Shown here in pieces: positions 61,012 through 64,000 of a DNA stretch of 64,000 nucleotides. A program made the translations under genes and the position numbers. The stretch's first letter is position 1, and every line of letters begins with the position of its first letter. Under the pieces are notes generated by a model. That model had not been told where the DNA came from and made no database searches. It saw nothing but the letters and a program-made list of their open reading frames with translations. Origin of the DNA: Veillonella magna DSM 19857 (GTDB lineage Bacteria > Bacillota > Negativicutes > Veillonellales > Veillonellaceae); contig NZ_KE386795.1 of assembly GCF_000428745.1 (NCBI RefSeq), positions 84,692 through 148,691 of the forward strand. The letters run 5' to 3'.

Positions 61012-61355
61012 GGGGACGTAATGGTTTCGACAGGGATGCGTGTATCATGGATAGCGAGCCGGCGTTCCATTAGGCCGTTAAACGGTGGAACCTTTAAATT
61101 AAACGCAAAAGAAAACTTTGCATTAGCTGCATAAGCTACGTCTTACCTCTCTTCGCCCGTGAGAGGGGATAAGGCGTCAAACTACGGGCTGGTTTAACTC
61201 ACTTGCTCAAATGAGTTAAATAAGATTCCTTGAGCTGGGACAGTGTAGTTTGTCGTTGTACAATAGCTGTCTGAGATTTAAAACAGCGACTGCGCTCGGA
61301 GAAGTCCTTGGGGCACCGTTTTTGGACAGGGGTTCGATTCCCCTCGTCTCCACCA
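61012..61355 (+). ncRNA. ssrA: Transfer-messenger RNA
   Basis: The 5' end GGGGACGTAATGGTTTCGAC and the 3' end GGTTCGATTCCCCTCGTCTCC plus ACCA form the tRNA-like acceptor (GGGGACG with CGTCTCC) and T arm, with CCA encoded. The tag reading frame at 61105-61134 reads AKENFALAA then TAA, ending in the ALAA degradation signal. The RNA rescues stalled ribosomes with SmpB. Size of 344 bases is ordinary. It is a one-piece gene. Confidence 0.96.
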
Positions 61356-61602: not shown

Positions 61603-61634
61603 TTGTTAACTTTGGTGTAGTATACAGTTGACTA
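61603..61634 (+). promoter_or_regulatory. Candidate BirA operator
   Basis: TTGTTAAC (61603-61610), 16 bp, then GTTGACTA (61627-61634). The consensus for Firmicutes BirA sites is TTGTTAACC, about 15 bases, GGTTAACAA. The left half is perfect over eight bases and the right half has two mismatches. It overlaps the -35 of the promoter in front of a bioY-containing operon, the expected place for biotin-responsive repression. BirA binding is inference. Confidence 0.6.
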
Positions 61635-61656
61635 ATGTATATATATCTTCTATAAT
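61628..61656 (+). promoter_or_regulatory. Promoter of the hydratase-bioY-thiolase operon
   Basis: TTGACT (61628-61633), 17 bp and TATAAT (61651-61656). The -35 is inside the right half of the candidate BirA operator. Confidence 0.75.
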
Positions 61657-61691
61657 CGAAACGTAGAAATCAAAATTGAGGAGGGACAGCG

Positions 61692-62366
61692 GTGTATACA
61701 TTGTTTCGTGCTATGACGGCAGCGGATATACCGAAGGACGTTGTTATTGCTTCTTTGGCATGGCGGCAACACAATCCGTCTCGTGCCGGAGTCTATGACA
61801 AAAGTCCGGAAACGAAGGTGCGTTGTCGTGGAAATCGCTACCGTTTCTTTGCTGTCGATGATGAGGGAAGCTTGGAGGCTGTCTTAGTGCCCTATGATTC
61901 TTCACGCACGATTCTTCCGACGAGTACTGCTGATGTAACAAGCGTAGGCGATACCGAGCAGTTGATACGCTGGCGTTCCTTTTCGCCAACGGTGGTACAT
62001 GCGTTTACCGAAGCGGTAGGCGATGCCAATCCCATTCACCGAGACGACTGCTGTATTGTGCCGGGGTGCTTATTGCTGGCTGCTTTTTACGAAGACTGGC
62101 CATCGGTAATACGTGGGAATAAGGAAAACGAGGCACGGCAGGAAGGCGATACACTTGGCACTGATATAGTGGGGAATGAGACGGTTTGCGGTAATACAAA
62201 AATACCATCAACAAAGGATACCATCAAGGAGATCCGTATCCGTTTTCGCAATCCCGTGTACGGGGATACACCGTTGTTTCTCCGAAGTGAGGGACCCACA
62301 GACTATACGGTGATTACTGCAGATGGACTGCGGCTGTTTGATGTGGTGGTTACTGTATCGGCATAG
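61692..62366 (+). CDS. MaoC/R-specific hydratase-like hot-dog protein
   Basis: The 224-residue protein has an N-terminal region of about 95 residues of unknown fold, then the MaoC-type segment FSPTVVHAFTEAVGDANPIHRDD (97-119), with the Asp-x4-His catalytic pair, and VPGCLLLAAF. (R)-specific enoyl-CoA hydratases use this pair to add or remove water at a 3-hydroxyacyl thioester. The C-terminal FRNPVYGDTPLFLR stretch fits the hot-dog sheet. Overall it is divergent. GTG 61692 follows GAGGAGGGA. It heads the bioY operon, so an acyl-thioester in biotin precursor metabolism is possible. Confidence 0.72.
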   Translation: MYTLFRAMTAADIPKDVVIASLAWRQHNPSRAGVYDKSPETKVRCRGNRYRFFAVDDEGSLEAVLVPYDSSRTILPTSTADVTSVGDTEQLIRWRSFSPTVVHAFTEAVGDANPIHRDDCCIVPGCLLLAAFYEDWPSVIRGNKENEARQEGDTLGTDIVGNETVCGNTKIPSTKDTIKEIRIRFRNPVYGDTPLFLRSEGPTDYTVITADGLRLFDVVVTVSA

Positions 62367-62419
62367 GATAGGTTCTTGACGTAGCAATTAAAAATAAATG
62401 AAGAAGGAAGTAGAGCTAG

Positions 62420-62935
62420 ATGAGTGATGTACGTAAATTGACAAAAATGGCGCTTTTGGTAGCGTTAATGTGTATTTCGGCGTATATTTCGTTTCCCTTG
62501 CCCTTTACACCGGCGATGGTTACGGCATTAACATTGGTTATGTGCTTGGTGGCCTTTATGCTGCCGCCGAAGGAAGCTTTCATTGTACTTTGTGTCTATG
62601 TGTTGCTGGGAGCGGTAGGCTTACCGGTATATGTAGGCGGTACGGGTGGTTTGGGCAAGCTGTTCGGACCGACCGGCGGTTTTATTTGGGGTTGGCCGGT
62701 AGCGTATACATTGCTGAGTATTTGCAAAGGTAAAACCGTATCCTTTTGGAGTTATGCATGGCGCGCCTGCGTCATTACGATTCCCATTACCTACGCGTTT
62801 GGTATTGCCGGCGGTATGATTGTAACAGGAATCGGATTTAACGCAGCCTTAGCCGGTTATGCGTTGCCTTTTATTCCCGGGGATGTTTTCAAATGCCTGG
62901 TGGCTTCGTGGTTAGCTACAAAAATTAGATTGTAA
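62420..62935 (+). CDS. bioY: Biotin transporter BioY (ECF S component)
   Basis: BioY binds biotin and works alone or with an ECF EcfAAT module. The 171-residue protein has about six membrane segments and the family pattern: FPLPFTPAMVTALTLV near 25, YVGGTGGLGKLFGPTGGFIWGWP near 72-95 and PFIPGDVFKCLVASWLATKI at the end. Genes for the ECF ATPases are not in the window. It lies 53 bp after the hydratase-like gene and 35 bp before the thiolase gene. Confidence 0.93.
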   Translation: MSDVRKLTKMALLVALMCISAYISFPLPFTPAMVTALTLVMCLVAFMLPPKEAFIVLCVYVLLGAVGLPVYVGGTGGLGKLFGPTGGFIWGWPVAYTLLSICKGKTVSFWSYAWRACVITIPITYAFGIAGGMIVTGIGFNAALAGYALPFIPGDVFKCLVASWLATKIRL

Positions 62936-62970
62936 ACAAAATGTAACAGATCGCAAGAGGAGGAAACGTT

Positions 62971-64000
62971 GTGAGTAACGGTAACAAGACTTCTTGTCGC
63001 GACGTATATATCATGGGCGGCCTTAGGTCGCCCATTGGTGTATATAGAGGACAATATAAGACAACGCCGCCGGAAGTATTGGGAGCGGCAGTGATTGATG
63101 CATTGCTGGAGCGCACCGGTTATACGACGGTGGATCGTGTCTATTGTGGCAATGCCGTAGCCGGCGGAGGAAATATAGGGCGTCTTACTGCATTGCTTTC
63201 ATCATTGCCGGAAACAGTACCGGCCGTAACGGTGGATATGCAATGCGCTTCGGCCGGCGGTGCCTTGGAATGGGCGTACAGCGGTATACGAGCCGGGTTG
63301 TACGATACCGTTTTGGCCGGTGGGACTGAAAGTAGTTCGCTGCAACCGCTGCGTACCTATGGGGACGATGATTATCGGGAAGGCTCGTACCGCGTGGCAC
63401 AGTTTTCGCCGCACGAGCGAGATGAGCTGGCCATGCTCAAAGGGGCGGAGCGTACCATGCAGAAATATCAGGTAAGGACCGATGATTTGACGCCGTGGAT
63501 ATTGCGCAGTCATCAGCGTGCCGTGCTGGCTGAGAAAGAAGGCTATCTACAATCATACAAACTTGACGGCGAAGACATGGAACGGCGCATAGCGCTTGTA
63601 AGTAAGGCCTATGGCATACCGCAGCCGATATTAACGCATACGCCGGTTGATGAATGCATTCGGCCGCGTATGTCGGAGCGTTTGTTACAACGAATGCCGT
63701 CTCTTTTGGGACCGAATACGCTGACTACGGCGGGGAATGCTTGTCTTACGCATGATGGAGCGGCCTTTCTTTTACTGGGGACACAGCCCTCAAGATATCG
63801 AATGACAGCGGTTACAGCATGGGCAGGCAATCCTTTGTACAGTCCGGAAGGTGCTATGGAAGCAACGGAACAATTGTTGACGCAAACGGGACTGACCATG
63901 GAAGCAATAGATGCAGTGGAGTGGAACGAAGCCTTTGCAGTGATTGATGTATTGTTCGGTCGGCGGTACGGAACATACACGGAACGCTATAACCGTTGCG
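62971..64000 (+). CDS. Thiolase family protein, C terminus outside window
   Basis: From GTG 62971 the frame stays open for 343 codons to the window edge; AGAGGAGG lies 7-10 bases upstream. The acyl-accepting cysteine is in DMQCASAGGALE (Cys92). The TAGNACLTHDGAA stretch near 250 and EWNEAFAV near 325 are typical thiolase elements. The final catalytic Cys and GGHPxG motif lie outside. It would condense or cleave 3-ketoacyl-CoA. The bioY-thiolase pair matches the Bacillus yhfU-yhfT-yhfS biotin regulon genes, where YhfS is a thiolase and YhfT an acyl-CoA ligase; a ligase gene may follow beyond the window. Confidence 0.9.
   Translation, partial: MSNGNKTSCRDVYIMGGLRSPIGVYRGQYKTTPPEVLGAAVIDALLERTGYTTVDRVYCGNAVAGGGNIGRLTALLSSLPETVPAVTVDMQCASAGGALEWAYSGIRAGLYDTVLAGGTESSSLQPLRTYGDDDYREGSYRVAQFSPHERDELAMLKGAERTMQKYQVRTDDLTPWILRSHQRAVLAEKEGYLQSYKLDGEDMERRIALVSKAYGIPQPILTHTPVDECIRPRMSERLLQRMPSLLGPNTLTTAGNACLTHDGAAFLLLGTQPSRYRMTAVTAWAGNPLYSPEGAMEATEQLLTQTGLTMEAIDAVEWNEAFAVIDVLFGRRYGTYTERYNRC

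What the first reader, a model, noticed from the sequence alone, without database searches (positions are those of the whole stretch)
61603..64000. Possible biotin-regulated pimeloyl-type operon: hydratase, BioY and thiolase behind a BirA-like operator
Seen: TTGTTAAC-16 bp-GTTGACTA overlapping the -35 of a clean promoter, then a MaoC-like hydratase, bioY and a thiolase, all on one strand with short gaps. Known: in Bacillus the bioY homologue yhfU is in a BirA-controlled operon with an acyl-CoA ligase and a thiolase of unproven role, and BioZ of alpha-proteobacteria builds a ketopimeloyl thioester from glutaryl-CoA. Inference: thiolase plus R-hydratase could be two of four steps of a reverse beta-oxidation route (glutaryl-CoA plus acetyl-CoA to pimeloyl-CoA), or could take apart an imported biotin precursor. 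The hydratase is a new partner for this association.
Basis: partly seen in the sequence, partly recalled or inferred. Interest (0 to 1): 0.75.

Follow-up and report, generated by a model that had tools for sequence, protein, structure and literature searches.

The report
Biotin-controlled acyl-chain-building operon
Next to a vitamin transporter, and under the cell's biotin sensor, sits a conserved set of three enzymes that looks built to lengthen an acid chain when biotin runs short; it is an enlarged form of a known but unexplained Bacillus operon and is probably not the biotin-precursor pathway first suggested.

Summary
BirA control is well supported: the genome's BirA has a DNA-binding domain; the exact site occurs three times in 2.2 Mb (before this operon, before bioB, once inside a gene); a box (>=13/16) precedes 30 of 35 sampled cassettes against 4-7% of control windows. 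The pimeloyl reading is not supported: the genome already has BioW (bioX-bioW-bioF), ten genomes carry the four-gene cassette with neither bioW nor bioF, and nine close relatives carry bioF without the cassette. Thirteen cassette genomes, the own included, have no acyl-CoA dehydrogenase, so ordinary beta-oxidation is out and a reductive, chain-building direction is likelier. Two new points: the hydratase is a compact double-hotdog (R)-hydratase-like family, unseen by Pfam and NCBIfam, that partners the Bacillus-type YhfS/YhfT pair across Negativicutes and some Clostridia; and the 'thiolase' belongs to a subfamily (80 of 80 named loci; Bacillus YhfS too) lacking the second catalytic cysteine, the base normally needed to use acetyl-CoA. 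The product remains unknown.

The parts
61603..61634 (+). BirA-type operator TTGTTAAC-N16-GTTGACTA
   Evidence: Read; same half-sites before bioB; conserved before relatives' cassettes
61628..61656 (+). sigma-70-type promoter TTGACT-17-TATAAT overlapping the right half-site
   Evidence: 11 of 12 consensus bases
61692..62366 (+). double-hotdog (R)-hydratase/dehydratase-like protein (GTG start), catalytic motif D111-A-N113-P-I-H116
   Evidence: predicted fold; no Pfam/NCBIfam hit
62420..62935 (+). BioY-family ECF S-component (bioY1)
   Evidence: Pfam BioY 107 bits; second bioY on contig C25
62971..64000 (+). YhfS-type thiolase-fold condensing enzyme (continues to 64167 outside the window); nucleophile C92, NEAF, GHP kept, second catalytic Cys replaced by Ala
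   Evidence: The fourth gene, the YhfT-like ligase, lies outside at window-equivalent 64178-65527 (L003 3870-5219)

Best explanation
A BirA-repressed operon, switched on when biotin is scarce, that couples a BioY-family vitamin importer to a three-enzyme module for lengthening an acyl chain by two carbons. Shown here: gene order, operator, a BirA with a DNA-binding domain, wide conservation, invariant catalytic residues of the hydratase, loss of the second thiolase cysteine. Inferred: (1) the YhfT-like ligase adenylates a carboxylic acid and loads it on CoA or ACP; (2) the YhfS-type enzyme takes the acyl group on its cysteine and condenses it with a C2 donor; (3) a FabG-type reductase of ordinary fatty-acid synthesis makes the (R)-3-hydroxy thioester; (4) the (R)-specific double-hotdog protein dehydrates it; (5) the FAS enoyl reductase finishes. 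Likeliest purpose: acyl-chain salvage or elongation that helps the cell when biotin-dependent acetyl-CoA carboxylase fails. It is not a dedicated pimeloyl-CoA route. Module logic and direction are fairly likely; substrate and purpose are a guess.
For: Operator, BirA HTH domain and genome-wide site count. Cassette conserved with differing flanks. Cassette present without bioW and bioF in ten genomes. No acyl-CoA dehydrogenase in 13 cassette genomes, so the degradative direction lacks its first enzyme. Hydratase fold nearest to (R)-specific enoyl-CoA hydratase 2, which matches FabG stereochemistry (established knowledge). Related ligase/condensing pairs sit with other hotdog dehydratases and a FabG-like SDR in G121, and with a FabZ-like ORF in G097. 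In S. aureus biotin limitation hits acetyl-CoA carboxylase and membrane lipids (PMC12642757).
Against: The condensing enzyme lacks the base used by ordinary thiolases, so an acetyl-CoA (biotin-free) condensation is doubtful, and a malonyl donor would itself need biotin. Twenty of 80 loci lack the hydratase and fifteen lack bioY; those without bioY show no BirA box, so the enzymes may have a role not tied to biotin. No substrate is known; no expression data.
Confidence: 0.4

Rival explanations
1. Scavenging without elongation: the ligase recycles free fatty acids to ACP or CoA when fatty-acid synthesis slows for lack of biotin, and the other two enzymes act as acyl transferase and thioester-processing hotdog protein.
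For: A review reports that B. subtilis YhfT forms acyl-adenylates and passes them to ACP, not CoA (PMC10988940). Loss of the base cysteine fits acyl transfer without Claisen condensation. Several hotdog thioesterases also match the predicted hydratase fold, more weakly.
Against: NEAF and GHP, which shape the enolate site in thiolases, are kept, and the hydratase keeps the full D/N/H catalytic motif in all homologues; both suggest real condensation and dehydration.
Confidence: 0.2
2. Vitamer repair: BioY imports shortened biotin catabolites such as bisnorbiotin; the ligase activates the side chain, the module adds two carbons and restores biotin.
For: Explains BioY linkage, BirA repression, and presence in genomes with and without biotin synthesis; needs a chain-building direction, as one search suggests.
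Against: No report of such salvage found. Fifteen of 80 loci lack bioY in the cassette. The B. subtilis BioY-family protein of the operon takes up pantothenate (PMC11487621).
Confidence: 0.12
3. Pimeloyl or pimelate synthesis: glutaryl thioester plus C2, then reduction, dehydration and reduction to a C7 dicarboxylic thioester for BioF, or free pimelate for BioW.
For: Same regulon as bioB and a bioW operon. BioZ does comparable chemistry in alpha-proteobacteria, and the source of pimelate for BioW is unsettled according to PMC11089781.
Against: Ten cassette genomes have neither bioW nor bioF; nine relatives have bioF and no cassette. BioW already supplies pimeloyl-CoA in the own genome.
Confidence: 0.1
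4. Classical beta-oxidation that takes apart an imported acid or biotin vitamer.
For: Ligase, hydratase and thiolase are three beta-oxidation activities.
Against: No acyl-CoA dehydrogenase in 13 cassette genomes, the own included. The thiolase base cysteine is absent. A biotin-repressed operon would not be expected to destroy vitamers.
Confidence: 0.03

Closest known systems
Bacillus subtilis yhfUTS operon (BirA regulon; YhfU = PanU) and S. aureus yhfS-yhfT
   Same: BioY-family S-component, YhfT-type ligase and YhfS-type enzyme under a BirA operator (PMC4016012, PMC6391492); Bacillaceae YhfS equivalogs G408/G236 also lack the second catalytic cysteine and sit beside ligase and BioY
   Different: Adds the hydratase; gene order differs (thiolase before ligase); sequences score far below the PRK06690 and PRK07638 cut-offs
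Thiolases (acetyl-CoA C-acyltransferases, e.g. Zoogloea thiolase)
   Same: Fold and nucleophilic cysteine, NEAF and GHP motifs
   Different: CXG (Cys378 base) and VMG fingerprints replaced by AxG-type and xSP in all 80 named loci
(R)-specific enoyl-CoA hydratase 2 / MaoC dehydratases
   Same: Predicted double-hotdog fold, D-x-N-x-x-H motif
   Different: Typically 165-200 aa against about 250-300, 10-15% identity, TM-score about 0.5; not recognised by Pfam or NCBIfam
BioZ pathway of alpha-proteobacteria
   Same: Idea of C5 + C2 condensation followed by FAS-type reduction and dehydration
   Different: BioZ is FabH-like and serves BioF; here the enzyme is thiolase-like and the cassette occurs without BioF

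Membership tests
BirA (biotin) regulon | Conserved BirA box in the promoter | tested here: met
   same site before bioB; 30 of 35 cassettes
BirA (biotin) regulon | BirA with N-terminal DNA-binding domain | tested here: met
   HTH_11 52 bits plus BPL domains in a 324-aa protein
BirA (biotin) regulon | Biotin-dependent BirA binding or repression | not testable with these tools
   Shown only for B. subtilis and S. aureus operators in the literature
YhfU/T/S-type operon | BioY-family protein, YhfT-type ligase and YhfS-type enzyme adjacent | tested here: met
YhfU/T/S-type operon | Equivalog score to PRK06690 (YhfS) and PRK07638 (YhfT) | tested here: not met
   178 of 498 and 143 of 518 bits: relatives, not equivalogs
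Thiolase (CXS, VMG, NEAF, GHP, CXG fingerprints; PMC3406046) | CXS nucleophile, NEAF, GHP | tested here: met
Thiolase (CXS, VMG, NEAF, GHP, CXG fingerprints; PMC3406046) | CXG base cysteine and VMG | tested here: not met
   0 of 80 named loci have the cysteine; VMG reads xSP
(R)-hydratase / MaoC hotdog superfamily | Hotdog fold with D-x-N-x-x-H catalytic motif | tested here: met
   Predicted fold (pLDDT 85) nearest to hydratase 2, E 6e-7; D, N, H invariant
(R)-hydratase / MaoC hotdog superfamily | Recognised by the Pfam MaoC models | tested here: not met
   No hit at E 0.001
BioY biotin S-component | BioY sequence family | tested here: met
   PF02632 107 bits
BioY biotin S-component | Transports biotin rather than pantothenate | not testable with these tools
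   B. subtilis family member YhfU is PanU (PMC11487621); comparison with L. lactis BioY was not informative
Pimeloyl-thioester synthesis operon | Tied to BioF-dependent biotin synthesis lacking another pimeloyl source | tested here: not met
   BioW present in the own genome; ten cassette genomes lack bioW and bioF

The most novel reading that the evidence does not exclude
A biotin side-chain repair pathway: BioY1 imports shortened biotin catabolites (bisnorbiotin, tetranorbiotin), the ligase activates them, a thiolase-fold enzyme with a non-thiolase active site adds two carbons, and FabG, the (R)-dehydratase and the enoyl reductase restore biotin, all under biotin repression.
Probability: 0.12. 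Interest if true: 0.85.

Novelty: new variant of a known kind. Interest (0 to 1): 0.5.

Why it matters
BirA-controlled YhfS/YhfT pairs are known in Bacillus and Staphylococcus, but no paper found here gives their metabolic role in biotin physiology. The hydratase partner and the missing base cysteine turn 'a ligase and a thiolase of unproven role' into a defined three-step module with a likely direction and a definite chemical oddity, and name organisms in which to test it. If the module repairs biotin vitamers or spares biotin-dependent lipid synthesis, it would be a widespread nutritional adaptation of gut, oral and rumen anaerobes.

Tried and rejected
Weak hits of the hydratase profile in G421, G251, G243, G371 are not in such a cassette. 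BioY1 and BioY2 compared with L. lactis BioY did not tell biotin from pantothenate. Bisnorbiotin salvage: no held paper found that reports it in bacteria (by titles and abstract openings). No held paper was found that joins bioY with a MaoC hydratase (open-licence library only). Joint loss of bioY and the box: in about 4 of 5 independent tree pairs they go together, none opposes, but too few for significance. Hydratase presence does not track the box. No Rfam element other than the upstream tmRNA. Rodionov 2002 is not in the library.

Full report
Observation. Reading on past the window gives the end of the thiolase at 64167 and, 10 bp later, an AMP-forming acyl ligase of 449 aa; the next gene, after a gap, is nrdD. 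The ligase and thiolase resemble the models PRK07638 and PRK06690 (which I take to be the Bacillus YhfT and YhfS types) but score far below those curated cut-offs. The hydratase hits nothing in Pfam or NCBIfam.

Regulation. The genome has one BirA of 324 aa with an HTH_11 domain. TTGTTAAC-N14..18-GTTGAC occurs three times in 2.2 Mb: at this operon, before bioB with identical half-sites and spacing, and once inside a peptidase gene; the reversed pattern occurs nowhere. Looser boxes lie before bioX-bioW-bioF and bioY2-bioD-bioA (13/16). In relatives a box of at least 13/16 precedes 30 of 35 cassettes, against 4-7% of control windows (G061, which has no cassette, left out, and the start of the G038 gene corrected). 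Among the 80 named loci, cassettes with bioY often have the box (38 of 55) and those without bioY do not (0 of 21) (added up here over loci with enough upstream sequence). B. subtilis BirA binds yhfUTS (PMC4016012) and S. aureus BirA binds yhfS-yhfT (PMC6391492).

Conservation. The order hydratase-bioY-thiolase-ligase is kept in relatives with different flanking genes. A profile of the hydratase finds the same cassette in further Negativicutes families and in two genomes of other classes; all nine strong hits outside weak MaoC-like ones sit in cassettes. The named scan shows it in Veillonella seminalis, V. ratti, V. rogosae, Negativicoccus, Mitsuokella, Anaerovibrio, Acidaminococcus, Pectinatus and some Clostridium. 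C. difficile, Propionispira and Succiniclasticum have bioY-thiolase-ligase without the hydratase. Of 80 loci, 28 have the four genes in this order (two more with a split ligase), 20 lack the hydratase, 15 lack bioY and 6 have bioY-ligase-hydratase-thiolase. Cassette-free Veillonellaceae were called by absence in two searches. Absence in more distant families is less certain, because one true cassette (G040) fell under the threshold.

Not a pimeloyl route. The own genome has bioX-bioW-bioF, bioB and bioY2-bioD-bioA, so pimeloyl-CoA comes from BioW. Ten genomes with the four-gene cassette lack both bioW and bioF: G029, G032, G035, G036, G038, G088, G272, G319, G433, G455. G031, with the three-gene form, lacks bioW, bioF and bioB. 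Conversely G007, G008, G010, G012, G014, G016, G018, G025 and G027 have bioF (bioW tested and present in G007, G008, G010, G025, G027) but no cassette. Within the order the two traits still correlate loosely through shared ancestry; the exceptions in both directions are what count. bioC and bioH were not searched.

Direction. PF00441 finds no acyl-CoA dehydrogenase in the own genome nor in G009, G013, G015, G019, G021, G026, G088, G272, G319, G343, G433, G455, while the same search rings in controls and in other relatives. Classical beta-oxidation is therefore not available to them. A reductive direction that borrows FabG and the enoyl reductase from fatty acid synthesis is the simplest alternative (inference). 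In G121 a related ligase-condensing enzyme pair sits with FAS1_DH and MaoC hotdog proteins, an SDR reductase and ECF-type genes; in G097 a thiolase-ligase pair sits with an ORF that looks FabZ-like to me but has no Pfam hit. Recurrent pairing with dehydratases supports the module reading; the G121 operon has no BirA box.

Active sites. Thiolases are defined by five fingerprints, of which CXG holds Cys378, the base that abstracts the proton from the second acyl-CoA (PMC3406046). All 32 sampled cassettes and all 80 named loci keep the nucleophilic cysteine and the GHP histidine but lack this cysteine, and VMG reads xSP in the 80. The two Bacillaceae YhfS equivalogs and the nearest YhfS-like proteins (G121, G097, G272, G306) also lack it, while the other thiolases in the same alignment keep it. 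So the biotin-linked enzymes are a subfamily with an altered active site; plain acetyl-CoA condensation should be tested, not assumed. The hydratase keeps D-x-N-x-x-H in every homologue examined. Its predicted structure (pLDDT 85, pTM 0.81) is a compact double hotdog whose best matches are enoyl-CoA hydratase 2 domains (E 6e-7, TM about 0.5).

What it may do. Literature adds two warnings: YhfU of B. subtilis is a pantothenate S-component, PanU (PMC11487621), and YhfT passes acyl-adenylates to ACP rather than CoA according to a review (PMC10988940). The BioY here may thus carry pantothenate, and the ligase may be an acyl-ACP synthetase. I rate acyl-chain salvage/elongation under biotin shortage highest (0.4 for the whole statement), scavenging without elongation 0.2, vitamer repair 0.12, pimeloyl synthesis 0.1, and degradation 0.03.

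Verdict. The system is a new variant of the known BirA-controlled YhfU/T/S operon.

Noticed in passing
L052 9372-10352 (contig C5 of the window's genome): BioW of this genome carries an in-frame insert of about 60 residues made of TTNHEAAAQP-like repeats that close relatives lack; the hydratase of the window also has a loop insert of about 35 residues not seen in relatives.
   Followed up: partly
L134 5449-13047 (genome G121): A fuller related operon: vitamin-transporter-like gene, ligase, thiolase without the second cysteine, two hotdog dehydratase genes, a FabG-like SDR and ECF transporter genes, with no BirA box.
   Followed up: partly
L146 (record labelled Streptococcus vestibularis strain AS012761): This contig carries a Veillonella-like hydratase-thiolase-ligase cassette and groups with Veillonella in the tree; probably a mislabelled or contaminated assembly.
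   Followed up: no
L165, L167, L178, L183, L189, L195, L198, L206, L210 and others: Rumen Selenomonadaceae and Quinella have hydratase-thiolase-ligase without bioY and without a BirA box: a form of the module apparently released from biotin control.
   Followed up: partly
L004 1-7025 (contig C25 of the window's genome): bioY2-bioD-bioA lies on a 7-kb contig between a repetitive YadA-like adhesin ORF and a transposase-like ORF.
   Followed up: no
window 61012-61355: tmRNA gene (Rfam 188 bits) just upstream of the operon and downstream of smpB; ordinary.
   Followed up: yes
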